Assembly: GCA_014382375.1 (NCBI GenBank)
Contig: JACNJU010000059.1
Location: 1 to 40,184 of the forward strand
Direction: 5' to 3'
DNA length: 40,184 bases
Source of the DNA: Rhodospirillaceae bacterium
Lineage (GTDB): Bacteria; Pseudomonadota; Alphaproteobacteria; Rhodospirillales; JABHCV01
This document shows positions 21,092 through 33,000 of this stretch, in pieces; positions within the stretch are counted from its first letter, which is position 1, and each line of letters starts with the position of its first letter. The position numbers were made by a program, and so were the translations under genes. Under the pieces are notes generated by a model. It was not told the DNA's origin. It did no database searches and saw only the letters and a program-made list of their open reading frames with translations.

Positions 21092-22093
21092 ATGTTTACC
21101 TTTGGATTCGCAAGCACGGAGCATGGCTTTGACCCGCTTTCCCTGCTCTTGATTGCCCTGTTACTTGACGCCTATCTGGGTGACGCCAGAATGCCGTTCA
21201 AGTTATTTCGCCATCCTGTGGAAATGATCGGCGGCTTGATCGACGGGTGCGACCGCAAGCTCAACCGCGATAACCGTTCCACCGTTGACCGGGCCATACG
21301 CGGCGCGCTGGTCGTGGTCTTTATTTGCGGCATCGCCGGGTTTATTGGTTGGTGCGCCGCCTGGCTGACCCAGAATCACGATTTTGGCTGGGTGCCAGAG
21401 CTGTTCCTGCTGACCGCCTTGCTTGCCGGGCGCGGCCTTTATGACAGTGTCAGGGCCGTCGCCCTTGGCCTGGGTCAGGGTTTGGAGCAGGGCCGTGAAG
21501 CGGTTTCCAATATTGTCGGTCGCGCCCCCAAACACCTGGACGAACACGGCGTCGCCCGTGCCGCCATCGAATCCTGCGCCGAAAATTTTTCCGACGGCCT
21601 GATTGCCCCTGTCTTCTGGTATGTGCTGTTCGGGTTGCCGGGACTGATGGTTTACAAGGCTGTCAACACCATGGATTCAATGATCGGCCACATGACCCCC
21701 AAGTACCGCGCCTTCGGCATGACCGCAGCCCGGCTTGATGATGTGCTCAACCTGATCCCGGCAAGGTTGGCCGGATTATTTCTGACCCTGGCCGCCATCT
21801 TCACCCCCGGGGCCAGTCCACTGAAGGCCCTGAAAATCATGCTCAGGGATTCCGGCAAGCACCGTTCCATGAACGCCGGCTGGCCCGAAGGAGCCGCCGC
21901 AGGAGCGCTTGGCCTGGCCCTGGCCGGTCCCCGGCGCTACCTTGAGAAGGTCATCGATGATCCCTGGATCGGCGACGGCACGGCCCGCGCCACGGACAAG
22001 GACATTGTCCGTATGCTCTATCTTTATGTCACAGCCGCCCTGATCAACGGGGCCTGGGTGGCGGCCCTGGTTATTGTTCGCATAGGCAGCTAA
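21092..22093 (+). CDS. cbiB: Adenosylcobinamide-phosphate synthase (CbiB/CobD)
   Basis: CbiB joins the aminopropanol or its phosphate to adenosylcobyric acid. It is an integral membrane protein of 333 residues from the ATG at 21092. The family start is DPLSLLLIALLLDAYLGD; later motifs are FRHPVEMIGGLI, the GRAPKHLDEHGVARAAIES segment, ENFSDGLIAPVFWY, and KAVNTMDSMIGH with a nearby NAGWPEGAAAGAL. About five membrane helices can be seen. The open frame begins at a TTG at 21035, but the 19 extra residues are not family-like. The stop overlaps the next gene as TAATG. In Pseudomonas denitrificans naming this gene is cobD. Confidence 0.93.
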   Translation: MFTFGFASTEHGFDPLSLLLIALLLDAYLGDARMPFKLFRHPVEMIGGLIDGCDRKLNRDNRSTVDRAIRGALVVVFICGIAGFIGWCAAWLTQNHDFGWVPELFLLTALLAGRGLYDSVRAVALGLGQGLEQGREAVSNIVGRAPKHLDEHGVARAAIESCAENFSDGLIAPVFWYVLFGLPGLMVYKAVNTMDSMIGHMTPKYRAFGMTAARLDDVLNLIPARLAGLFLTLAAIFTPGASPLKALKIMLRDSGKHRSMNAGWPEGAAAGALGLALAGPRRYLEKVIDDPWIGDGTARATDKDIVRMLYLYVTAALINGAWVAALVIVRIGS

Positions 22094-23028
22094 TGCAAAA
22101 CATCATCACCATCACGCTGCCGTTTTTCGCCCTGATCGGTTGCGGTTATCTGGCCGGTCGGAAAGGCTTGCTTGGCGATGAGGGTATCAAGGGCCTGAAC
22201 GCCTTTGTCTTTTACTTCGCCCTGCCAAGCCTGATTTTCACATCCCTTGCCAGCAAACCGCTGACCGACATCATCAACCCCGAATTCATGGGCGCTTACT
22301 TAAGCGCCAGCATCGCCGTGTTCGCCGCCGCCGCTTTTTTGAGCCGCCTCCTGTTCAAGACCACGCTCGGCATGGCGGCCCTGCAGGGGCAGGCCGCCAG
22401 TGTCGGCAATGTCGGCTATCTGGCGCTGCCGCTGATCAGCGCCTTGTTGGGCGCTGAGGCCGCCTTGCCGGTGGTGCTGGGCTGGCTTGTCGACCTGATT
22501 GTGCTTGTGCCGCTTTCCATTGCGCTGCTGGAAGTTGATCGACACGCCACCGGTGTCTGGCTGGATTTTGCCCGCAATGTCATCAGGGGCGTCGTGCTGA
22601 ACCCGTTTGTGTTGTCGATTATGGCTGGCGTCCTGTACGCGGCCAGTGGCCTGCCACTGCCGGTTCCGTTGGAATCGTTCACCGGCCTTTTGGGCAAGGC
22701 GGCGGGGCCCTGCGCGCTGTTTGCCCTTGGCGCCACCCTGGCCAGCAGGCCGCTTTCCGACGGGCTTGGCGAAGCCGCCACCATGAGTATCTTCAAACTG
22801 TTCATCCATCCTGCCGTGATGTGGATTTCGATGGTCATGATTTTTGAAATCGAGCCGCTTTGGGCAACCGCGGCGGTACTGACGGCGGCAGCCCCGGTTG
22901 CCGGCAACGTCTATATCGTGGCCCAGAGTTTCGGGGTTTATGTACTGCGCGTCTCGAGCGCGATCCTGTTATCAACAGCCATGGCGGTGCTGACGCTTTC
23001 GGCGCTGGCGGCATTTCTGGTTAACTGA
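22093..23028 (+). CDS. AEC (auxin efflux carrier) family transporter
   Basis: This 311-residue protein has about ten hydrophobic helices in two sets of five, the AEC layout in the inner membrane. It opens with [18 protein letters not shown], a common AEC start, and has [10 protein letters not shown] in the fourth helix and [12 protein letters not shown] late, both typical substrate-helix motifs. Family members carry malate, other dicarboxylates or amino acids; none is known to me to carry cobalt or corrinoids. Its ATG overlaps the cbiB stop, so it is translated from the cbiB message, which makes a role in cobalamin or precursor transport worth testing. It runs 8 bases into the convergent cobQ end. 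Confidence 0.88.
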
Positions 23029-24532
23029 CGGGCCGCGCACAATCATAAAGATGGTTCAGGTCCAGATGCTTTTCCAGATGTTCGGCCAGGGCGTCGAGGG
23101 TTTTCTCAACCCGGAGATCGTGGGCGGTTTCATGGGACCGGCCAGTCCGAAGCGACGATAAAAAAGCGTGGCGGAAAGAATCGGCAGCAAAGAGCCCGTG
23201 AACGTATGACCCCAACACCCTGCCGTCCGGGCTGCGTGCGCCTTCGCTGCGTCCGTCATCCAGCATGATCCAGGGATTGGCCCGGTCCGGCCCTTCACTA
23301 AGCCCTAAGTGCATTTCATAGCCATGCACTTTCTCGCCGCTGACAAGATCGACACCCGAAACGGTCTCAAGGGCCTTATCGTCCGAGAGAACCGTCTCCA
23401 CATCGAGCAAGCCAAGACCCTCAATCTGGGCTGCCGCCCCCTCGATGCCGTCCGGATCAGAAAGCCGAAAGCCCAGCATCTGATAGCCACCACACAGGCC
23501 GATGACGATGCCGCCGCGGCGGACGTGGGCGGCAATATCAATATCCCAACCCTGATCCCGCAAGAATGTCAGATCGGCAATCGTCGCTTTGGAGCCGGGA
23601 ATCAAAATAACATCGGCTTCGCCAGGCAGAACAGCGCCGGCCTCGATGATGCTGACCGACACATCGGGCTCCGCCATCAGCGGGTCGAGATCGTCAAAAT
23701 TGGCGATCCGTGAAAGCCTCGGCACGGCGATCAGAATATCTTTCCGCCCTTTCCCGCCCTGCTCTTCCTCGCGCCTGTCCAGGGCCATGGCGTCTTCTTT
23801 GGGAAGCAACCGGGCATCGTCGAAAAAGGGAACCAGGCCAAAGGACCGCAGGCCGGTTTTTTTTGTGATGATGTCGTTGCCGCTGCCAAACAGCGCCGCA
23901 TCGCCCCTGAACTTGTTGATGATGAAGCCGGCAAGCAGTTTGCGTTCTTCGGGTTCAAGCAGCAGATCGGTGCCGACGACGGAGGCAATAACACCGCCGC
24001 GATCAATATCGGCGATCAGGACAACCGGAACATCTGCGGCCAGGGCAAAGCCCATGTTGGCGATATCGGCGTCGCGCAAATTGACCTCCGCCGCACTCCC
24101 CGCCCCTTCGATCAACACCAGGTCGGCCTCTGCCGCTATCTCACGGAAACTTTCGAGAACCCGTTTCATCAGCTTTGGTTTCAGCGCGTGATAGTCGGCG
24201 GCCTTGAAAGTCCCCTCGCGCTTGCCCTGAACAATGACCTGGGCCCCGGTCTCACTTTCCGGCTTGAGCAACACCGGATTCATGTGGATGGAAGGGGCAA
24301 CCCCGGCGGCCTTGGCCTGCAGGGCCTGGGCCCGACCGATCTCGCCGCCTTCAACCGTCACCGCGGCGTTGTTGGACATGTTCTGTGGCTTGAAAGGGCG
24401 CACCCTGAGACCGCGTTTGGCAAAGGCGCGGCACAAACCGGCGACCAGCAGCGACTTGCCGACATCCGAACCGGTGCCCTGAAACATCAGGGCGCGGGCT
24501 GCCGAAACGGGTTTTGCCGGTTTTTTTGTCAT
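23021..24532 (-). CDS. cobQ: Cobyric acid synthase (glutamine-hydrolysing)
   Basis: CobQ/CbiP amidates the b, d, e and g side chains of adenosylcobyrinic acid a,c-diamide. The 503-residue protein has the P-loop [13 protein letters not shown] at 18-30, [20 protein letters not shown], the [20 protein letters not shown] stretch, and a class I amidotransferase domain with nucleophile in [10 protein letters not shown] and the later HGYEMHLG and GSYVHGLF motifs. It starts 7 bases after the SYLF lipoprotein ends and overlaps the end of the AEC gene tail to tail by 8 bases. Before the cassette was inserted it may have been in one run with cobO. Confidence 0.95.
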
Positions 24533-24539
24533 CAGAACG

Positions 24540-25226
24540 TCAGGGGCCGGTCAGTGCGGCCCGCAATCCATCGGCCTGGGGGTTCTGTCCCTGGCCCTGA
24601 TAAAGAATGCCCTTGGGAGTCACACCCTGCCCGTAATAGGCCTCGTTCAGATCAACCCGACGTGCCAGTACCGCCCCTTCAAGGGCGGCCCCGCCGAACA
24701 GGCCGATTTTGGAATTGGCGAAAGCCAGAACATCGACGCCGATGTTGGTGGTCGTCGAGACTTCAGCACCCTGACCGACGGTGCCGATGGTGATCCCGGC
24801 GTCGGCGCCCAGTTTGCCCTGATGATCAAGCACGGCGGCGACCGCATTGTTGCTGCGCAGAACCAGCACGATTTCCGTATCCTGCAAGCCCATCTGAATG
24901 CCGAAGCTGGCGGCGCCCAGAATGTAGAAAGCCGGGTGGCTCCATGAACCATCATCGGTTTTAACCATCATCACGCCGTTACCGCCTTCGCCGCCAAGCA
25001 TGAACCCGCCCTTGATGACACTGGGCAGGACGATGATGCCGCGCGCCGTCGGCATGTATTCGGCGAACCTTTGCAGGTCGGGCATCCCCTTGAAGCGTTG
25101 CACGGTCTCGGTCGCCTGATTGACCAGATCAACAGCCGTCGAGCGTTCATCCCGGCGCATCTCTGCGCAACCGGCAAGGCTGACAACAAACGCTAAAAGG
25201 GCGGCTAAAAGAGTCGGTTTATTCAT
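24540..25226 (-). CDS. SYLF/YSC84-domain lipoprotein
   Basis: The 228-residue protein has a lipoprotein signal peptide with lipobox LAGC, so lipid is attached at C20 and the mature protein is probably on the outer membrane or periplasmic face of the inner membrane. The rest is a SYLF (YSC84) domain, known in other organisms for lipid binding: [51 protein letters not shown], and the later [21 protein letters not shown]. It lies directly upstream of cobQ on the same strand (7 bases), an odd partner for a cobalamin enzyme. It is the last ordinary gene before the inserted cassette. Confidence 0.9.
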
Positions 25227-25339
25227 AAGATATCCCTTGTTACATCCCGCAAGCTAACGGCGAATCGCCAAGCCCCGGCATTGTAGCGGAAATCAGAAAG
25301 AAAACAGAGCCGTCATCCCAATTCAACACCGCACCCGTC

Positions 25340-25359
25340 ATTCCCGCGAAAGCGGGAAT
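25340..25359. repeat. Palindrome ATTCCCGC-GAAA-GCGGGAAT
   Basis: An 8-base perfect stem closes a GAAA tetraloop, inside GTCATTCCCGC...GCGGGAATCCAG. Short palindromic repeats of this wording are dispersed in many proteobacterial genomes, and the core resembles the ATTCCC-N8-GGGAAT form of Neisserial dRS3. It could also act as a stable RNA hairpin. Only this copy is in the window. Confidence 0.75.
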
Positions 25360-25493
25360 CCAGTTTTTCCCGTGACTTAAGGAAAAACCACCACCAGAAA
25401 CCTAAACAATTATTGAGAAACGAACCCATTCCACGATGCGGAAAAAACTGATAAAGCACAGATTCCTAGCCCGGACCCCACGTTTACTTACGC

Positions 25494-25688
25494 TTATTCA
25501 GCATGACAAAGAGTGACAGGAATATATTCCAAAATAGGTAAAATGTCAAGAATTTTCAGAGCCAGATATGAAGCTTCAATAGATTGTTCATTCGAGCCAT
25601 GGCTGAGAAGTTCGAGTTTGTGGAACAAGAAGCTATTAAAGTGGAAAGGATAAACATCTATAAGTATGCCCGTCTGACGCCAGTACAT
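25494..25688 (-). CDS. Doubtful 64-residue hypothetical frame
   Basis: An ATG at 25688 opens a 64-codon frame with no ribosome binding site and no recognised domain. The residues (for example IDVYPFHFNSFLFHKLELL and LALKILDILPILEYIPVTL) could be a helical fragment, and base use is AT-rich like the cassette. It is divergent from the methyltransferase, the usual place of a small controller protein, but no helix-turn-helix can be seen. It may be a remnant of a gene from the cassette's former location, or not coding at all. Confidence 0.2.
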   Translation of the reverse strand: MYWRQTGILIDVYPFHFNSFLFHKLELLSHGSNEQSIEASYLALKILDILPILEYIPVTLCHAE

Positions 25689-25721
25689 TATTATGGCTAC
25701 GGAAAATTCGTCGCGTTTTCT

Positions 25722-25739
25722 AACCTAAGCAGTTAGGTT
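25722..25739. repeat. Inverted repeat AACCTAA-GCAG-TTAGGTT
   Basis: A perfect 7-base inverted repeat with a 4-base loop lies 64 bases before the preferred methyltransferase start. It could be an operator for autoregulation of the methyltransferase, a hairpin in its leader, or one end of the inserted segment. Confidence 0.5.
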
Positions 25740-25758
25740 GTTTTATCGAGATACCTGT

Positions 25759-25781
25759 GAGTCGGCGTTCGCCAGTGACTC
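25759..25781 (+). promoter_or_regulatory. Possible leader hairpin before the methyltransferase
   Basis: GAGTC at 25759-25763 can pair with GACTC at 25777-25781, and GGC pairs with GCC around a GTTC loop inside, leaving a three-base bulge (AGT). With the adjacent inverted repeat it would fold the region just upstream of the methyltransferase start. A regulatory role is inference only. Confidence 0.3.
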
Positions 25782-25803
25782 CCTTGGAGCACTAAGCCCA
25801 ATT

Positions 25804-26784
25804 ATGAATGTTAAAACCGAAAACAAGCCCCCAAAAACCAAAGCTAACGAGGCAATGCACCCTCAGGTGATCGGCGAGGAGATTTTTGCTTCCGATGAAA
25901 TAAAGAAACGCGCCTATTACGCCGACGATACGACACTTATCTTCCACATGGAAGTCCGTGAAGCCCTTCATTTTCTCAAAGAGCAAAATTTATATGTAAA
26001 CTGCATTGTGACGTCACCACCATTTTACGGCCAGCGGGATTACGAGGAGGAGCGCCAAATTGGATTGGAAGAGCACCCTAAAAACTTTATAGAAATTCTT
26101 ACTATTATCTTCGGGCTATGCCGCTCTGTCTTAGCAGACAATGGCAGCCTCTGGGTCAATGTTGGAGACACGTATTGGAGTGGAAAAGGACAACACCGGA
26201 GCGGAGAAGCCAAACAAAACGCCCGTCGATTTGGATTGCGGCCACAAGATCGAAAAGGTGACGGCAAGTGGTGTGTGCCGAAGCAATTGCTTCTAATCCC
26301 TCACCGACTAGCGATTTCAATGCAAGATGACGGGTGGTTAGTGCGAAATGACAACGTGTGGAAAAAACCAAACCCAATCCCGGATCAAGTACGTGATCGT
26401 TGCTCTGTCTCGCACGAATACGTTTTTCATTTCGTGAAGGAGCGATGGTATTACTTTGACAAAAATCCGGTTGGTCGCCCAACTGAAAGTGGATCGATCC
26501 TGCCACCGCAGGACACATGGGAAGTTCCGACAGTAAAAGGTAAGCGTAATGGCCATTCAGCTCGCTTTTCTGAGGAATTGGTGCGAATACCAATCCTTAC
26601 AACTACGCCACCAAGGGGTATTGTACTTGATCCATTTGCGGGGAGTGGAACCAGCCTATTATTTGCCAGAAAACATGGATTTCGATGCATAGGAATTGAT
26701 GTAAAAGAAGAGTTTTGTGAGCTAATGAAAAATTCCCTTATGGAAATGGCCGATGAGGAAGAGCGCGAAAGTCAATCAGAGTAG
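25804..26784 (+). CDS. Beta-class DNA methyltransferase (N4-cytosine or N6-adenine)
   Basis: The protein transfers a methyl group from SAM to an exocyclic amino group in DNA. Catalytic motif IV, VTSPPFYGQRDY (S71-P72-P73-F74 from the ATG at 25804), comes first, and SAM-binding motif I, LDPFAGSGTS with D at about 276, comes last: the beta order. The SPP form is more common among N4-cytosine enzymes, but base specificity cannot be decided. Length is 326 residues, usual for an orphan or type II enzyme without an added domain. The open frame starts at a TTG at 25738; ATGs at 25804 and 25855 are better, with GGAG 14 bases before the former. Base use is AT-richer than the cob genes. It heads the plus-strand cassette; a self-protection role for the downstream nuclease is inferred. 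Confidence 0.88.
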   Translation: MNVKTENKPPKTKANEAMHPQVIGEEIFASDEIKKRAYYADDTTLIFHMEVREALHFLKEQNLYVNCIVTSPPFYGQRDYEEERQIGLEEHPKNFIEILTIIFGLCRSVLADNGSLWVNVGDTYWSGKGQHRSGEAKQNARRFGLRPQDRKGDGKWCVPKQLLLIPHRLAISMQDDGWLVRNDNVWKKPNPIPDQVRDRCSVSHEYVFHFVKERWYYFDKNPVGRPTESGSILPPQDTWEVPTVKGKRNGHSARFSEELVRIPILTTTPPRGIVLDPFAGSGTSLLFARKHGFRCIGIDVKEEFCELMKNSLMEMADEEERESQSE

Positions 26785-26839
26785 AATTGATACACCGATT
26801 TGCGCTTTGCTTATGACGTTCAAAGGTAGCTACTGAATT

Positions 26840-27397
26840 ATGTATTTAAATGCTGAAACAGTTACGAACGCTATTCGTATCCTAAGCGAGAGGGTACACC
26901 CATTTGTGGGCATTACTTTTTTGGCTTGCAAGGCATACAACTTGAGCATTGGTCAAGAAGTGAGTGTCAGCATTGATGGATTAACACGAGAACACCTAAA
27001 TAAATATCATCGACTAGACCGGAAAAGTGATTATTTCTTTCAACCATTTAGGAGTGGAAGCAAGTCTCATAGGTGGGTGTCCCCAAAATACGCCTCTTCT
27101 GGTCTTCAAAAAGCAAACACACAAACTTTCAAATCGGTTTTTCTTCATGAAAGTCGATCCCATGAATGGGGCTTTGCAAGTGATTACATAAATCAGATAA
27201 AGGAAGTGCTTTGTGGGGACGCTTTGCCAGAAAAGGCGCCTAGTTGGCCCTTAGCTGTATGGCTCTATAAGAATGTTGAACTTAGCTCAACACCTGAGCC
27301 GCGCCTCTTAGTGGAGGCGTTTTATGAGAAATTTAGAATTTCTGACGACGAACGTGAGCATCTGTTTGAAGACGACTTCTCAAACCTGCCTCCCTAA
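26840..27397 (+). CDS. Unrecognised 185-residue protein of the defence-like cassette
   Basis: I do not recognise a family. The protein begins at an ATG at 26840 with AAAGGTAG about 11 bases upstream, 55 bases after the methyltransferase. It is soluble-looking and rich in aromatics and basic residues in the middle (KYHRLDRKSDYFFQPFR, SHRWVSPKYASSGLQ), with a hydrophobic AVWLYKNVEL segment near 140 and an acidic C-terminus (DDEREHLFEDDF). There is no signal peptide, membrane helix or obvious nuclease motif. Its TAA at 27395 is in the same frame as the ATPase that follows, and the 14 codons between its stop and the ATPase GTG are open. It may be a DNA-recognition or regulatory part of the system, or a split-off N-terminal domain of the ATPase. 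Confidence 0.75.
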   Translation: MYLNAETVTNAIRILSERVHPFVGITFLACKAYNLSIGQEVSVSIDGLTREHLNKYHRLDRKSDYFFQPFRSGSKSHRWVSPKYASSGLQKANTQTFKSVFLHESRSHEWGFASDYINQIKEVLCGDALPEKAPSWPLAVWLYKNVELSSTPEPRLLVEAFYEKFRISDDEREHLFEDDFSNLPP

Positions 27398-27439
27398 AAT
27401 AGTAAATTCTTTTCGAATGAGCCACTAGCTATTCCCAAT

Positions 27440-28720
27440 GTGCTGGACTCGTTTGATCCGCCGCCAGATGGGAAAAGCGAACTAGGAAGAACTCTGACTT
27501 GGCTAAAAATTGAAAACTCAGTGCTCGCACCTAACTTAGAGCTGGAATTCGGTGAACGCTTGAGTTTGATTACCGGCGACAACGGTCTTGGTAAGTCGTT
27601 CCTCCTTGAATTTGCATGGTGGGCGGCAACGGGGACTTGGGCTCACCGACCTGCTCTTCCCAATCTGACTGATCGAGGCGGTGCTCCACGTGTGGAGTAT
27701 TCATTGAGGGGAAATTCAGGGCGATTGACGAAAGGCGCATTTAGTTTTGATTTCCAGCGAAATATATGGTCGCTGAATAGCTCGTCCCCAAACGTCGAAG
27801 CTCTGAGTATTTTTGCTCGCGCTGATAGTTCTTTTGCGGTTTATGATCCAGTTCGTTCTCAACTTCAAGGCCCGTCCGATGATCAAATTGGTCTGCTCAC
27901 AAGCGATGACGTCTGGAATGGCAAAGGGCTACTGATTGAGGGACTCATACGTGATTGGGTCCGATGGCAAAAGGCTGAAAACAAGCTCAGCTTTGATCGG
28001 TTTTGCTCAGTCTTGCGCAGGCTAAGCCCAGAAGACTTGGGGGAACTAACGCCGGGCGCAACAATAAGGATACCGGGCGATTCTCGTGACATCCCCACGA
28101 TTAAGCACAAGTATGGTACGGTTCCAATAATCCATGCATCCTCGGGTGTCCAAAGGGTTCTTCTGCTAGCGTACCTAATAATTTGGGCATGGCAAGAGCA
28201 TGAACTAGCCGCTACCCAACTATCTCGCGAACCACTTCGGAGACTTGTTGTCTTTATTGATGAGCCAGAAGCTCATTTGCATCCGAAATGGCAACGCATC
28301 GTTTTGCCTGCACTTATGAGCATAGGAGACCTGTTAAGCGGGGAACTAACGATACAAACAATCGCTGCTACCCATTCCCCAATGATTCTTGCATCTATGG
28401 AACCATCTTTTGATCCTGAGCAAGATACCCTCCACCATCTATTCGCCGATTTAGGTGCCGTAAAGCTAGAAAACATACCGTTCGTTAAATATGGAGATGC
28501 GTCTGGCTGGCTAATGTCTCCTCTTTTTGGTTTGCAGCATGCTCGTTCGCGTGAGGCCGAACGTACAATTGAACGGGCAAAAGCAGTACAGTTGGAAGAG
28601 CAACCAAGCGCGGCGCGTGTTCAAGAGTTGACGGATGAATTGAGACGTTTGCTCTCAAATGATGACAAATTCTGGCCACGGTGGCTTTACTTTGCCGAAA
28701 AACACGGAGTGGAGCTTTGA
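27440..28720 (+). CDS. ABC/SMC-type ATPase, PtuA-like (Septu-type defence)
   Basis: This 426-residue protein is an ATPase of the OLD/RecF/PtuA type. It has Walker A GDNGLGKS (46-53), an ABC signature HASSGVQRVLLLAY with S235-G236-Q238, Walker B VVFIDEPEAHLHP (D274, E275), and the H-loop ATHSPM (H312). A helical insert lies between Walker A and the signature. The C-terminal about 60 residues are charged and helical. In Septu anti-phage systems a PtuA ATPase of this architecture pairs with an HNH nuclease, PtuB, and here an HNH-like gene follows directly. The start is a GTG without a ribosome binding site; no better start exists before Walker A. Function in phage defence is inferred from family and context. 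Confidence 0.85.
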   Translation: MLDSFDPPPDGKSELGRTLTWLKIENSVLAPNLELEFGERLSLITGDNGLGKSFLLEFAWWAATGTWAHRPALPNLTDRGGAPRVEYSLRGNSGRLTKGAFSFDFQRNIWSLNSSSPNVEALSIFARADSSFAVYDPVRSQLQGPSDDQIGLLTSDDVWNGKGLLIEGLIRDWVRWQKAENKLSFDRFCSVLRRLSPEDLGELTPGATIRIPGDSRDIPTIKHKYGTVPIIHASSGVQRVLLLAYLIIWAWQEHELAATQLSREPLRRLVVFIDEPEAHLHPKWQRIVLPALMSIGDLLSGELTIQTIAATHSPMILASMEPSFDPEQDTLHHLFADLGAVKLENIPFVKYGDASGWLMSPLFGLQHARSREAERTIERAKAVQLEEQPSAARVQELTDELRRLLSNDDKFWPRWLYFAEKHGVEL

Positions 28721-29325
28721 TCCGAGTTTCTCTCAAGCCAGAGTACCCCGATTTTAACATGAGGGTGAGGCAACCTGGGAGAACCTTCTTGGGTGCCACC
28801 CCAAATCCTAATTCTAAGCAGTTTAAGCGAAAAAATTATTGGACCAGGGCGCTTAGCGAACTTCACGCCGCATATGCTGGAGTTTGCGCTTACACAGCCA
28901 TGTATCTTCCGGATCGAGGATCAGTTGACCACTTTAGGCCGAAAACGGCCTTCCCAGAACTTGCTTATGAGTGGAGCAACTTTCGTCTTGCCGGTGGGCG
29001 CATTAACAGCACGAAGGGCAACTCTTTAGACATCCTGGATCCATTTGAGATAGAAGACGATTGGTTTTATCTCGATATTCCGAGTTGTCTAATTCGAGCA
29101 AATTCCAATTTGGATAAAGCACTTAAGGGACGCATTAACCTTACGATAAACTCACTTGGTTTGAATTCCGACGATATCTATGTTCAGGAAAGGTGCAACA
29201 TACTTATTGCATTTGCGCAAGGACAAATTGGGCACGATTTTCTTAAAGAACGGTACCCCTTCTTAGCTCGTGAAATTTTGCGCCAGGAACTTCTTGATCA
29301 ATTAGCGACAATATTCAAATTGTAA
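28717..29325 (+). CDS. HNH-like nuclease, PtuB-like, with altered zinc cysteines
   Basis: The 202-residue protein follows the ATPase in PtuB position. A TTG at 28717 overlaps the ATPase stop as TTGA, with GGAG at 28711-28714 just upstream, so translation is probably coupled; the GTG at 28681 would start deep inside the ATPase gene. The HNH core is seen as VDHFRPK (D71, H72), EWSNFRLA (N88) and RINSTKGN (N97). Homologues of this kind usually carry two CxxC pairs around the core; here the first reads CAYT (only C57 kept) and the second GGRI, so three of four zinc ligands are missing. Catalytic residues appear intact. It may be zinc-free, or a decaying or regulatory variant. Confidence 0.75.
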   Translation: MIRVSLKPEYPDFNMRVRQPGRTFLGATPNPNSKQFKRKNYWTRALSELHAAYAGVCAYTAMYLPDRGSVDHFRPKTAFPELAYEWSNFRLAGGRINSTKGNSLDILDPFEIEDDWFYLDIPSCLIRANSNLDKALKGRINLTINSLGLNSDDIYVQERCNILIAFAQGQIGHDFLKERYPFLAREILRQELLDQLATIFKL

Positions 29326-29373
29326 CAAAATAATCGCATAAAACCGGCTGGTCGATCCCGTAAAACTAGATTG

Positions 29374-29387
29374 GATCAATCTTGATC
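29374..29387. repeat. Inverted repeat GATCAA-TC-TTGATC at the right junction
   Basis: A 6-base inverted repeat with a 2-base spacer lies in the 132-base gap between the HNH gene and the end of cobO. A second short hairpin, AAATCC-GTCT-GGATTT, is at 29408-29423. The gap otherwise holds nothing I can name. On the minus strand the second hairpin is followed by a few T residues and might weakly terminate the cobO transcript. Confidence 0.4.
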
Positions 29388-29457
29388 AGGTCAAATGCCT
29401 GTAAGGAAAATCCGTCTGGATTTAGGGCACTTTCCCAATGACACCAATGAAGCATTA

Positions 29458-30063
29458 CTAAAACTCAACCCCCTGCTGGGCTTTGATGCCGGAGCGGAAG
29501 GGGTGTTTGACCAGTGTCATGTCGGTGACAAGGTCGGCGACTTCGATCAGGTCATCGTGGGCGTTGCGGCCGGTGGCGATGACGTGCAGCATGGGCGGAC
29601 GTTCGCCCAGGCCTTCGATGACGTCGGCGATGTCCAGATATTCGTAGCGCAGGGCGATGTTGATTTCATCGAGAATGACCATTGAATAACTTTCGTCGGC
29701 GATCATGTCCTTGGCCGCCGCCCAGGCTGCCGCCGCCGCCGCAACGTCGCGCTCCCTGTCCTGGGTTTCCCAGGTGAAGCCCTCGCCCATGGCCTTGATC
29801 GTGACCTGATCCGGGAATCTCTCGAAAACATCACGCTCACCGGTCTCCCAGGCGCCCTTGACGAACTGCACGATGCCAACCTTTTTGCCGTGACCGATCA
29901 TCCGCATGGCCATCCCCCAGGCCGCCGTCGATTTGCCCTTGCCCTTGCCCGTATGGACAATCAGCAAGCCTTTCTCTTCGGTCTTGGTCGCCAGAATCTT
30001 GTCACGGGCGGCTTTTTTCTTGGCCATCTTTTCGCTGTGGCGGGCGTTGTCGGTATTGACCAT
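29458..30063 (-). CDS. cobO: Cob(I)yrinic acid a,c-diamide adenosyltransferase
   Basis: CobO/BtuR transfers the adenosyl group of ATP to the reduced corrinoid cobalt. The 201-residue protein has an N-terminal basic helix, then the P-loop VHTGKGKGKSTAAWG (residues 36-50), VQFVKGAWETGE, FTWETQD and the DEINIALRYEYL segment around 130, and ends KHPFRSGIKAQQGVEF, the usual C-terminus of the family. AGGA lies 8 bases before the ATG at 30063. It is the last gene of the late cobalamin run after cobN; beyond its end lies the cassette. Whether it was once followed by the SYLF-cobQ genes is inferred. Confidence 0.95.
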   Translation of the reverse strand: MVNTDNARHSEKMAKKKAARDKILATKTEEKGLLIVHTGKGKGKSTAAWGMAMRMIGHGKKVGIVQFVKGAWETGERDVFERFPDQVTIKAMGEGFTWETQDRERDVAAAAAAWAAAKDMIADESYSMVILDEINIALRYEYLDIADVIEGLGERPPMLHVIATGRNAHDDLIEVADLVTDMTLVKHPFRSGIKAQQGVEF

Positions 30064-30085
30064 GGGATGTTCCTGTTTCTTGTGT

Positions 30086-33000
30086 TTAAGCTAACATTTC
30101 CGTTAAGGCGGCGTGGGTGCTGTTCAGGCGCGGCGTCCAGATTTCGCGGGCCTGCGCTTCGAGCAGACGCTCGATCATATCCTTCAGGGCGTCCGGGTTG
30201 TGGGTTTTTATAAAGTCCCTGACCGCCTCGTCGCCCAGATAAGCCTCGAAGACGGCGTCGAAGTGGTGGTCGCTGACACAGTGGGCTGTGGCGGCGAAGG
30301 CGAACAGGTAATCGACGGTGGCGGCCATTTCAAACGCCCCCTTGTAGCCGTGGCGCATGACCCCTTCAATCCACTTGGGATTAACGACGCGGGCCCGCAC
30401 GACACGGGCGATCTCATCCTCAAGGGTGCGGATGCGCGGGGTTTCGGGCCGCGAGTGATCGTTGTGATAGACCTTGGGCTGGCTGCCCGACAGGTCCCGC
30501 ACCGCCGCCGTGATGCCGCCTTCGAACTGGTAATAATCGTCGCTGTCGAGCAAATCATGTTCGCGGTTGTCCTGATTGTGGATCACCGCTTCGACATTTT
30601 TCAAGCGCGTCTCGAAAAGTCCGTGCGCCGCTTCACCCGCCGCCCCTTCACCGTAGGCGTAGCCGCCCCAGGCGACATAGGCGCGGGCCAGATCGGCCTC
30701 TGTCTGCCAGCCCTTCTCGTCAATCAGGGCCTGCAAACCGGCCCCGTAGGCACCCGGCATGGAGCCGAAAACCCGGTAAGCGGCGCGCTTTTCTGCCTGC
30801 TCTGCGTCCATGCCGTGGGCGATAAGGTCCGCCCGGTCTTCGCCGACCCTGGCGGCCAGTGGATTATCGGCGGGGGTTTCATCAAGAGCGGCGACGGCGC
30901 TTGCGGCAGAGGAAAACAAATCGATCAGGCCGGGGAAGGCATCGCGGAAAAAGCCCGACACCCGAAGCGTCACATCGACGCGGGGCCGGCCAAGAATTGA
31001 CAACGGCAGAACCTCGAAACCGGTGACCCGCCGCGAGGCCGCGTCCCATGTCGGCTTGACCCCCATCAGAGCCAACCCTTGCGCGATATCATCGCCGCCG
31101 GTGCGCATGTTCGATGTGCCCCAGGCGCTGAGCGCCATGGTTTTGGGCCACGCCCCGTGTTCCTGACGGTGATGCTCGATGAGCAGTGATGCCGACTTCC
31201 AGCCCAGTGTCCAGGCCGCCGGGGTCGGCACGGTGCGGGTATCGACGGAATAGAAATTACGGCCCGTTGGTAAAACGTCGGGGCGGCCACGGGTCGGCGC
31301 GCCCGAAGGCCCCGGCTCGACAAAACGGCCATCAAGGCCACGCAGGAGCCCTACCAGCTCCGCTTCGCCGCAGGCTTCCACGGCAGGTTTAATCTTGTCT
31401 TCCAGAGCCTCCAAAACTGACAAAGTACGGGTCCAGCTTGCTTCTGGTTTTTGCTCAGCCGAAACCAGCCGGGCCGCCAGCTGTTCGAGCCGCTCAATCG
31501 TGTCGCCGTGGCTGCGCCAGCTGCCTGTGCCTGTCAGGACGGCCGGTTTCGGACCATCCCAGGGGCTGCCCATCTCGCAATCAAGGGGATCAAAATCCAG
31601 ATCAAGATCAGCGGCCAATGCCCTTAGAATCGAGGCGTCGCCCCCATCGCCGGACGCCCTTGGCACCCGCAGCAGGGCGACCAGGAGATCGGTCAGCAGG
31701 CGGCTTTCGGGGGTCAGTCCAAAGATATGCAAACCGTCGCGAATCTGCATTTCCTTCAACTCGCAAAGATAGTTATCGAGTTGGCCCAGCGCCTCGTCCT
31801 CGTCCGCCGCCTTGTCCATGCCGCAATCGGAGTCCAGACCAATGGCCGCGCACAGACTGAGGATTTCCTTTTGCAGAACTTTCAGGCGTCTGGGATCAAC
31901 ACCGGAAGCCTCGTAAAATTCATCGACCAGCCCTTCCAGATCGGCCAATGGTCCATAGCTTTCGGCCCGGGTCAGTGGCGGAGTCAGGTGATCGATAATA
32001 ACCGCTGCCGACCGGCGCTTGGCCTGGGTGCCTTCGCCGGGGTCATTGACGATGAACGGATACAGGTGTGGCATGGGCCCCAGGGCGGCTTCCGGGAAAC
32101 AATCTTCGGACAAGGCCAGCGACATGCCCGGCAACCATTCCAGGTTGCCATGCTTGCCAAAATGAATAACCGCATGGGCGTCAAAGTCGCTGCGCAGCCA
32201 GGCATAGAACGCCAGATAGCCATGGGTCGGCACCAGGTCCGGGTCATGGTAGCTGGATTGCGGGTCGATGTTGTACCCACGGGCTGGTTGCAGGCCGATG
32301 GCGACATGGCCGATTCGGTATGCGGAAATCGCAAAACGCCCGCAATCGACTTCGCCGGGCATATACATCAAATCGCTCTCAGGCGCCCCCCAGCGTTCGC
32401 TGATCGCCTTTTGAACCGCCACCGGAAGCGCGGCGAAGAATTGCTGGTAATCGGCCATGGACAGGGTTTCGCAAATCTCGCCAACCGGCCCCTGATTGGT
32501 CGGGCCTTTAAGCAGCCGGGCGATCAGTTGTTGCCCGTCCTGGGGCATGTCCTCGATGCTGTATCCTGCGGCCTTCATGGCGCGCAGGGCTTCTACGGTA
32601 CCTGCCGGGGTATCGAGACCGACGCCGTTGCCAATGCGGCCATCCTTATTGGGATAGTTGGCAAGGATGATAGCGACGTGGCGATCTTCGCACGGTGTGG
32701 CGGCGAGGCGGGCCCACTTTGCGGCCAGCGCACAGACAAAATCGATACGGTCAGGGACCGGTTCGTAGGTAATGATATCGGTCTGGGTTTTTTCGTCGCG
32801 ACGGGTCGAACCCTTGAACGAGACGGCACGGCTGAGGACATGGCCGTCGACTTCCGGCAGGGCAACATTCATGGCGATGTCGCGGGCGCTCAATCCATGC
32901 AGGCCGTCCTGCCAGGACTCAAGGCTTGAGCTTGAAAAGACCACCTGCAGGACAGGCGCGCCGGAAGCATCAAACGGTGTCGGGGTACGCACAGCCCCCG

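What the first reader, a model, noticed from the sequence alone, without database searches (positions are those of the whole stretch)
25804..29325. Methyltransferase + unknown protein + PtuA-like ATPase + PtuB-like HNH: a possible new Septu/R-M hybrid
Four plus-strand genes in AT-richer DNA interrupt a minus-strand cobalamin region. The ATPase/HNH pair has Septu architecture, but Septu is usually described as two genes without a methyltransferase. Here a beta-class DNA methyltransferase and an unrecognised 185-residue protein come first. A working hypothesis is that methylation marks self DNA while the ATPase/HNH complex attacks unmarked DNA, with the unknown protein as recognition or licensing factor. 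Motifs are seen in sequence; the defence role comes from family knowledge; the hybrid model is inference.
Basis: partly seen in the sequence, partly recalled or inferred. Interest (0 to 1): 0.82.

Follow-up and report, generated by a model that had tools for sequence, protein, structure and literature searches.

The report
Methylase-coupled Septu operon with interrupted ptuA
Three genes, not four, form a defence cassette in which a DNA-marking enzyme is tied to a Septu-type ATPase and nuclease through a front domain that related DNA-cutting systems also carry, so this looks like a restriction system that borrowed another system's weapon; the copy seen here has a stop codon in its ATPase gene.

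Summary
The cassette is real but mis-parsed. The "185-residue unknown" and the "426-residue ATPase" are one ptuA gene (627 codons, one frame) broken by one TAA at codon 186, in the linker between an N-terminal domain (NTD) and the ABC-ATPase. The operon is methyltransferase (MTase)-ptuA-ptuB, in a ~4.16-kb insertion whose empty site exists in a same-genus genome. The MTase link is conserved: 25 of 25 testable loci with NTD-bearing PtuA (window included) have an MTase directly upstream; 0 of 21 PtuA loci without the NTD do. The same MTase lineage also sits on plasmids beside McrBC-like AAA/nuclease pairs, whose AAA protein begins with a homologous NTD (hhalign probability 97.2; 17 control windows at most 1.1). 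Best reading: an R-M-like system in which the NTD reads the site that the MTase protects and PtuAB replaces McrBC as effector. Recognition, methylation and cleavage are inferred. Whether this copy works is unknown: no other locus shows the stop. New variant of known kinds (Septu crossed with LlaJI/McrBC-type R-M).

The parts
25294..29457 (.). about 4.16-kb insertion that holds this cassette
   Evidence: Window 22000-25293 and 29458-32861 align at 87-88% to G001 (same genus) with about 16 bases between them; G002 also lacks the insertion. No other gene was recognised among the ORFs (short ORFs were not searched against families). Only 7-base direct matches and no inverted match of 8 bases or more between the 160 bases around each border.
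25804..26784 (+). DNA methyltransferase, 326 aa, motif IV before motif I (beta order, recalled term), group A of two groups
   Evidence: PF01555 E 1.2e-40; PADLOC MTase_II PDLC03387 E 9.2e-79; motifs TSPPF and DPFAGSGTS. Base type unsettled: TSPPF suggests N4-cytosine (recalled rule), nearest PDB chains include both adenine and N4-cytosine MTases.
26840..28720 (+). ptuA, 627 codons in one frame with one in-frame TAA
   Evidence: PDLC00270 split over both halves; read with TAA=X; relatives uninterrupted.
26840..27379 (+). PtuA N-terminal domain (residues 1-180), candidate target-recognition domain
   Evidence: 23-row alignment with 20 invariant columns; model pLDDT 89.5, pTM 0.87; homologous to N-termini of MTase-linked McrB-like proteins.
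27395..27397 (+). in-frame TAA, codon 186, in the inter-domain linker
   Evidence: nearest relative has GCG there; residues 182-184 of the L018 PtuA model, the matching place, have pLDDT under 50 (three other short segments of the ATPase part are that low too).
27491..28717 (+). PtuA ABC-ATPase domain (residues 218-626)
   Evidence: GDNGLGKS and IDEPEAHLHP (Walker A and B, names recalled); PF13304 and PF13175 above cut-off; the model of the L018 relative is closest to Septu and retron PtuA chains in PDB.
28717..29325 (+). ptuB, HNH nuclease, 202 aa, TTG start overlapping the ptuA stop
   Evidence: PDLC00348 E 1.5e-65 (with the longer start); core CAYT..VDHFRPK..YEWSN..N..K conserved; profile A5 finds retron PtuB chains in PDB.

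Best explanation
MTase-PtuA-PtuB is a self/non-self DNA discrimination system: a restriction-modification system whose restriction half is a Septu effector. The MTase marks a specific host sequence. The N-terminal domain of PtuA reads the same sequence on incoming DNA when it is unmarked. Binding changes the ATP-driven state of the PtuA ABC-ATPase, which releases or fires the PtuB HNH nuclease. The recognition module (MTase plus NTD) is portable: related plasmid systems attach it to McrB/McrC-like effectors instead. Shown: conserved three-gene order, NTD homology across two effector types, NTD-MTase linkage, conserved motifs. Inferred: DNA reading by the NTD, protective methylation, firing on unmethylated DNA, and the substrate of PtuB. 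In this copy ptuA is split by TAA in the linker, so it is either recently inactivated, a sequence error, or working as two polypeptides.
For: MTase directly upstream in 25 of 25 testable NTD-bearing loci: the window (the starting point), 23 of the 24 loci L018-L041 (L036 begins inside ptuA at a contig edge) and L044; the 24 others were found through PtuA sequence, not through the MTase. 0 of 21 N-less PtuA loci have an MTase-family or NTD profile match in the fetched flanks. Fisher p 1.4e-13; 2.2e-9 if the three loci with a doubtful MTase (L024, L035, L041) count as lacking it and the two N-less loci with short flanks are dropped; neither is corrected for kinship. The same MTase lineage (58-73% identity, six plasmid records) occurs with AAA + DUF2357 cassettes (PDDEXK_7 in L050). 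The NTD profile hits their N-termini (E 4e-7, 1.4e-5, 1.7e-5, 2.3e-3, 0.02 in a small set); profile-profile probability 97.2, E 4.5e-11 over 172 columns, 17 control windows at 1.1 or less. MTases nearer group B sit with AAA_5 and McrC (PF10117) genes; profile-profile 91.9 over 102 columns for their N-termini. In McrB and LlaJI R1 the N-terminal half holds or is tied to DNA specificity, and LlaJI acts on unmethylated DNA (passages of PMC1459862; PMC12707154). The NTD is the faster-changing part of PtuA (39-53% to the window in the eight other group-A loci besides L018, against 56-63% for the ATPase).
Against: No experiment. The NTD model matched no solved structure (Foldseek none at E 0.001; best Z 4.5), so DNA binding is not shown by fold. 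MTase distances do not follow NTD distances better than ATPase distances (partial r 0.20 against 0.33). The MTase falls into two groups (31-40% identity between them) on PtuAs that differ less sharply, so the NTD did not simply co-diverge with it. Of the four group-B-like McrB proteins the NTD profile alone hits only L062 (E 2.8e-6); L061, L063 and L064 score E 0.25 to 1.1. The 672-aa proteins are AAA only weakly by Pfam (L050 below cut-off), better by PADLOC PDC-M26A (E 6.4e-30). L041 keeps an unbroken PtuA and PtuB with only a 110-aa MTase remnant, awkward for an essential protector unless that assembly is faulty. N-less PtuABs do without this MTase. This copy carries a stop codon.
Confidence: 0.62

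Rival explanations
1. About this copy only, and compatible with the best explanation for the family: it is dead or dying. A nonsense mutation (or assembly error) separates sensor from ATPase, and the locus has no present function.
For: Single in-frame TAA; 23 of 24 other NTD-bearing loci have one unbroken frame over both domains (L040 is frameshifted); no ribosome-binding site seen by eye before the GTG at 27440 (sequence).
Against: No other lesion seen in the three genes; low dN on both sides of the stop against the nearest relative (NTD 0.24, ATPase 0.11, synonymous sites near saturation). M. abscessus plasmids encode a homologous NTD and AAA as two ORFs joined as TAAATG (L053; same annotation in L065), so a split arrangement exists. 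A single base error in the assembly cannot be excluded.
Confidence: 0.45
2. Methylation-guard with an RNA or single-strand DNA effector: the MTase/NTD pair detects unmarked DNA, but PtuB then cleaves tRNA or ssDNA and aborts the infection rather than cutting the invader's dsDNA. A variant of the best explanation.
For: Retron-Eco7 PtuAB leads to depletion of tRNA-Tyr and an E. coli Septu cleaves it (passages of PMC11555353 and PMC13096335); retron Ec83 PtuAB is reported to degrade ssDNA (passage of PMC12948488).
Against: The PtuB here is remote from the retron Ec78 one (NCBIfam PtuB 28.2 bits against a cut-off of 150); Septu of E. coli ATCC25922 is cited as acting on nicked DNA (passage of PMC11555353).
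Confidence: 0.2
3. Ordinary Septu with a neutral or regulatory MTase: the NTD is a regulatory or oligomerisation domain or senses a phage protein, and the MTase controls expression or counters other restriction.
For: PADLOC profiles call both proteins Septu; the NTD has no recognised fold; MTase and NTD distances are not specially coupled.
Against: NTD-MTase linkage (25 of 25) against 0 of 21 N-less loci, and the same NTD-MTase pairing with another effector family.
Confidence: 0.12
4. Licensing by methylated DNA: the NTD binds the host's methylated sites and this holds PtuAB off; loss or dilution of the mark during infection releases it.
For: E. coli McrB reads methylated DNA through its N-terminus (passages of PMC1459862); retron-Eco7 PtuAB is neutralised by its msDNA and reverse transcriptase (passages of PMC11555353).
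Against: MTase-coupled LlaJI reads the unmodified site (passages); no test here distinguishes the two.
Confidence: 0.08

Closest known systems
Septu (PtuA-PtuB), PADLOC type I
   Same: PtuA ABC-ATPase and PtuB HNH nuclease, adjacent and overlapping.
   Different: Extra ~180-residue N-terminal domain on PtuA and a linked upstream MTase. The passages read of PADLOC's 2021 paper name type I (AB) and type II (with reverse transcriptase) (PMC8565338).
LlaJI-type R-M (McrBC-like restriction with cognate MTases)
   Same: MTase in the operon, NTPase subunit with N-terminal recognition region, separate nuclease subunit (passages of PMC1459862, PMC12707154).
   Different: One MTase rather than two, an ABC-type PtuA ATPase instead of the McrB-type GTPase, HNH PtuB instead of the PD-(D/E)XK subunit; the LlaJI recognition domain is described as B3, to which this NTD was not matched.
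MTase + AAA (PDC-M26A-like) + DUF2357 cassettes on plasmids (L050-L053, L057, L065)
   Same: Same MTase lineage (58-73% identity) and homologous NTD.
   Different: McrBC-like effector instead of PtuAB (PDC-M26A tested for L050 and L053 only; the McrBC-like label for this group is my inference).
Retron I-A (Ec78/Eco7, Ec83)
   Same: PtuA-PtuB effector pair; among the closest solved structures.
   Different: No reverse transcriptase gene recognised in the 4.16-kb insertion; NCBIfam PtuA 48.9 bits against a cut-off of 500.
Hma (helicase, m5C MTase, ATPase)
   Same: An MTase-bearing operon reported often near Septu (passage of PMC8565338).
   Different: Separate three-gene system with a helicase; no helicase gene recognised in the insertion.

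Membership tests
Septu | PtuA-family ABC-ATPase | tested here: met
   PDLC00270 E 5.2e-190 and 6.4e-54 over the two halves; L018 PtuA model matches Septu and retron PtuA chains (Foldseek E to 4.2e-14, TM-score by target at most 0.58 in the rows shown).
Septu | PtuB-family HNH nuclease directly downstream | tested here: met
   PDLC00348 E 1.5e-65; conserved HNH core.
Septu | Uninterrupted ptuA in this copy | tested here: not met
   In-frame TAA at codon 186.
Septu | Two-gene system without other partners | tested here: not met
   MTase upstream in 25 of 25 testable NTD-bearing loci, window included.
Septu | Anti-phage activity | not testable with these tools
   Needs phage challenge.
Restriction-modification (MTase plus cognate restriction) | DNA MTase with intact motifs in the operon | tested here: met
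   PF01555 above cut-off; TSPPF and DPFAGSGTS.
Restriction-modification (MTase plus cognate restriction) | MTase linked to the recognition/restriction part | tested here: met
   25 of 25 against 0 of 21.
Restriction-modification (MTase plus cognate restriction) | Methylation protects host; unmethylated DNA is cut | not testable with these tools
   Needs methylome and restriction assays.
McrBC / LlaJI | N-terminal domain shared with MTase-linked McrB-like proteins | tested here: met
   hhalign 97.2, E 4.5e-11; controls.
McrBC / LlaJI | McrB-type NTPase plus McrC or PD-(D/E)XK subunit | tested here: not met
   The window has an ABC-type ATPase (PF13304/PF13175) and a PtuB HNH.
McrBC / LlaJI | NTD has the B3 or other known McrB-N fold | tested here: inconclusive
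   No Foldseek match at E 0.001; best Z 4.5.
Retron type I-A | Reverse transcriptase beside PtuAB | tested here: not met
   No reverse transcriptase ORF recognised in the insertion.
Retron type I-A | msr/msd RNA beside PtuAB | not tested
   No RNA family search was made.
MADS (methylation-associated defence) | MAD3 ATPase at family cut-off | tested here: not met
   NF047739 21.2 bits against 420.

The most novel reading that the evidence does not exclude
A portable 'MTase + reader' module plugs into unrelated killing machines: McrBC-like nucleases in some plasmids and the Septu PtuAB complex here. Septu would then be, in this lineage, a methylation-gated restriction system (possibly an abortive one acting on RNA or ssDNA), which supplies a definite trigger (unmarked target DNA) for a Septu ATPase. 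The window's split ptuA could be a two-polypeptide version with reader and ATPase working in trans, as the homologous pair of ORFs on M. abscessus plasmids suggests.
Probability: 0.45. Interest if true: 0.8.

Novelty: new variant of a known kind. Interest (0 to 1): 0.62.

Why it matters
My impression, from the passages read and from memory, is that how Septu senses infection is not settled. Here the sensing input appears to be written in the operon: a methylated site and a reader domain. That makes the trigger of a PtuA ATPase directly testable with a defined DNA, and the effector swap with McrBC gives a natural chimera to guide the experiment. It also warns that an annotation of 'Septu' from PtuA/PtuB alone misses a linked MTase in this lineage.

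Tried and rejected
Rejected: four-gene reading. Rejected: alternative code or conserved recoding; in 23 of 24 other NTD-bearing loci one frame runs unbroken over both domains. Rejected: special co-divergence of MTase and NTD; partial r 0.20 with NTD (4 of 2000 label permutations reach it) but 0.33 with ATPase (21 loci; dropped beforehand L024, L035, L036, L040, L041). Trees of the four parts agree broadly and L027 gives no clear mosaic. Dropped: an HTH gene upstream of the MTase as a general feature; Pfam supports it in L044 and L050 but not for the 100-aa ORF in L028.

Led nowhere: viral-contig scans with PtuA, MTase and the McrB-like NTD (no relatives); A3 in four genomes (no match, no positive control); target sequence of the MTase (an MTase annotated Pac25I, beside an XcyI-family enzyme, is only 34-41% identical to our set). 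NTD fold: best rows were Cdt1, MarR-type and ROQ chains at Z 4.5 or less, too weak to use.

Limits of the control: the 21 N-less loci were tested with a profile of this MTase family, so an unrelated MTase would be missed; the feature tables of L014-L016 list no DNA MTase, L017 has no annotation, L012 and L013 have 1.5 kb of flank. Of the six plasmid records four were fetched. Neighbours were looked at for 9 of the 104 records (H7-H15 without gaps: H7, H8, H9, H10, H11, H12, H13, H14, H15) and for 4 more of the 75.

Literature: searches listed no paper that by title, abstract start or opened passage describes MTase-PtuA-PtuB; not all listed papers were opened. Passages only were read of PMC13096335, PMC11555353, PMC8565338, PMC1459862, PMC10853773, PMC12839542, PMC12707154, PMC12948488, PMC11811056, PMC10013915. 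The ABC-ATPase classification PMC7544218, the Septu structure paper PMC12318543 and the LlaJI structure paper PMC6066307 are not held, so prior description there is possible. PMC10853773 mentions an 'MTaX1' domain in R-M systems; I could not test whether the NTD is that domain.


Full report
What is there. A plus-strand, AT-richer stretch interrupts the cluster. In a same-genus genome (G001) the two flanks, window 22000-25293 and 29458-32861, lie about 16 bases apart; a second genome (G002) also lacks the stretch. So 25294-29457, about 4.16 kb, is an insertion that carries this cassette; I recognised no integrase among its ORFs and found no clear terminal repeats.

Three genes, one broken. PADLOC's PtuA profile PDLC00270 is 627 positions long. 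The 185-aa ORF matches its positions 1-174 and the 426-aa ORF its positions 202-627. Both are in one frame, and reading the TAA at 27395-27397 as X gives a 626-residue protein plus stop that aligns end to end with uninterrupted PtuAs of 77% and 55% identity. Of 24 other loci with this architecture, 23 have one unbroken frame over both domains and one (L040) is frameshifted. The nearest relative has GCG at the site. The stop sits in the linker: residues 182-184 of the L018 PtuA model, the matching place, have pLDDT below 50 (so do three segments inside the ATPase part), whereas the NTD is mostly above 80. Against L018, dN is 0.24 for the NTD, 0.11 for the ATPase, 0.12 for the MTase and 0.16 for PtuB, with synonymous sites near saturation, so both halves were under constraint until recently. 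Whether the stop is real, and whether the halves work apart, cannot be told here.

The MTase belongs to the system. A scan of genome contigs with the PtuA alignment gave 24 loci. Apart from L036, which begins inside ptuA at a contig edge, all 23 have an MTase match directly upstream and PtuB directly downstream; adding the window, the starting point, and viral contig L044 makes 25 of 25. Caveats: L024 has frameshifts in MTase and PtuB, L035's MTase is cut by the contig end, L040's PtuA is frameshifted, and L041 has only a 110-aa MTase remnant. The rows used for trees come from seven phyla (Pseudomonadota, Bacillota, Bacteroidota, Nitrospirota, Gemmatimonadota, Acidobacteriota, Thermodesulfobacteriota; labels) plus the viral contig. 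Control: PtuA relatives without the NTD, 15 places in 14 of 398 genomes of the phylum (all fetched), and six earlier loci (L012, L013; L014-L017, four of the six plasmid records). None of the 21 shows an MTase-family or NTD profile match at E 1e-3 in the fetched flanks, whereas 20 of 21 show PtuB (L012 and L013 have only 1.5 kb of flank). Fisher p is 1.4e-13, or 2.2e-9 with three doubtful MTase rows counted against and the two short-flank rows dropped, without correction for kinship. The system is rare in these samples: the NTD alignment matched 2 of 398 genomes of the phylum, the window's own included, and full-length PtuA relatives occur in 3 of 385 genomes of the class, own included.

The N-terminal domain is a shared module. 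The window-type MTase (group A) also occurs on plasmids at 58-73% identity. I looked at the neighbours of the six best records. All six have an annotated DUF2357 protein downstream and, between it and the MTase, a 672-aa protein or a pair of ORFs that takes its place; in the M. abscessus records a minus-strand gene lies between as well. The 672-aa protein of L050 matches PADLOC PDC-M26A (E 6.4e-30) and AAA families of Pfam only below cut-off; L051, L052 and L057 are 45-79% identical to it; the second ORF of L053 is AAA_5 above cut-off. L050's DUF2357 protein carries a PDDEXK_7 nuclease domain. Three records have an annotated HigA-type HTH gene before the MTase. A profile of the PtuA NTD hits the N-terminus of these proteins (E 4e-7, 1.4e-5, 1.7e-5, 2.3e-3 and, for the separate M. 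abscessus ORF, 0.02; small search set). Profile-profile comparison gives probability 97.2 and E 4.5e-11 over 172 columns, positions 2-176 against 3-197. Of the 20 windows compared, two N-terminal ones score 96.5 and 95.7, one overlapping the domain's end 11.1, and the other 17 are at 1.1 or below. On plasmids this N-terminal domain was found in six records, the same six that hold the MTase. MTases closer to group B (45-50% to L028) sit, in four further plasmid records, before an AAA protein (AAA_5 in the three tested) and a third gene, McrC-like (PF10117) in two of three tested. Their N-termini score 91.9 over 102 columns by profile comparison; with the NTD profile alone L062 is hit (E 2.8e-6) and L061, L063 and L064 are not (E 0.25-1.1). 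On the M. abscessus plasmid of L053 the NTD and AAA parts are separate ORFs joined as TAAATG, a split like the one in the window.

How it most likely works. In McrB and in LlaJI R1 the N-terminal half carries, or is held to carry, the DNA specificity, and LlaJI, which has MTases, acts on unmethylated DNA (passages of PMC1459862 and PMC12707154). By position, linkage and homology I infer that the NTD here reads the site that the MTase protects, and that PtuAB is the effector. What PtuB cuts is open: published PtuABs are reported to act on nicked DNA, ssDNA or tRNA-Tyr (passages of PMC11555353, PMC13096335, PMC12948488).

Results against. MTase distances do not track NTD distances more than ATPase distances. 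The MTase falls into two groups of 31-40% identity to each other, on PtuAs that differ much less sharply, so the MTase was probably exchanged at least once (depends on rooting) while the NTD stayed; a change of target would then need changes within the NTD. The NTD fold matched nothing known. The base that the MTase marks is unsettled: its nearest PDB chains include adenine and N4-cytosine MTases. L041 has PtuA and PtuB without a whole MTase.

Verdict. It is a new variant at the border of Septu and McrBC/LlaJI-type R-M. PADLOC profiles already recognise these PtuA and PtuB proteins; the paper describing PADLOC names no MTase-linked Septu type in the passages read, and my searches listed no description, with the limits named under Tried and rejected.

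Noticed in passing
L014:4380-7814: An N-less PtuA-PtuB pair on an Allocoleopsis plasmid is preceded by a gene with YpsA (SLOG), DUF4326 and weak Macro matches: possibly another sensor type for the same effector pair.
   Followed up: no
L016:4884-7940: On Azospirillum plasmid pAB510c an N-less PtuA-PtuB pair follows a 344-aa protein without a Pfam family above cut-off.
   Followed up: no
L030:1333-6375 and L031:444-4499: In Gemmatimonadota locus L030 an Eco57I-type 1349-aa R-M protein and an Mrr nuclease lie upstream of the cassette; L031 has a 1351-aa ORF that begins alike (by eye): a defence island.
   Followed up: partly
L044:101-5456: A 5.8-kb IMG/VR contig has a recombinase-like ORF (by eye), a Cro/CI-type HTH gene and the whole MTase-PtuA-PtuB cassette, suggesting a mobile carrier with a controller-like regulator.
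   Followed up: partly
L041:6805-7134: Unbroken PtuA and PtuB with only a 110-aa MTase remnant in a gammaproteobacterial MAG: either an assembly fault or loss of the MTase with the nuclease kept.
   Followed up: no
L061-L064: Plasmid cassettes of MTase + AAA (McrB-like) + third gene (McrC-like in two of three tested), with the MTase nearest group B (45-50% identity to L028), look like LlaJI-like R-M systems.
   Followed up: partly
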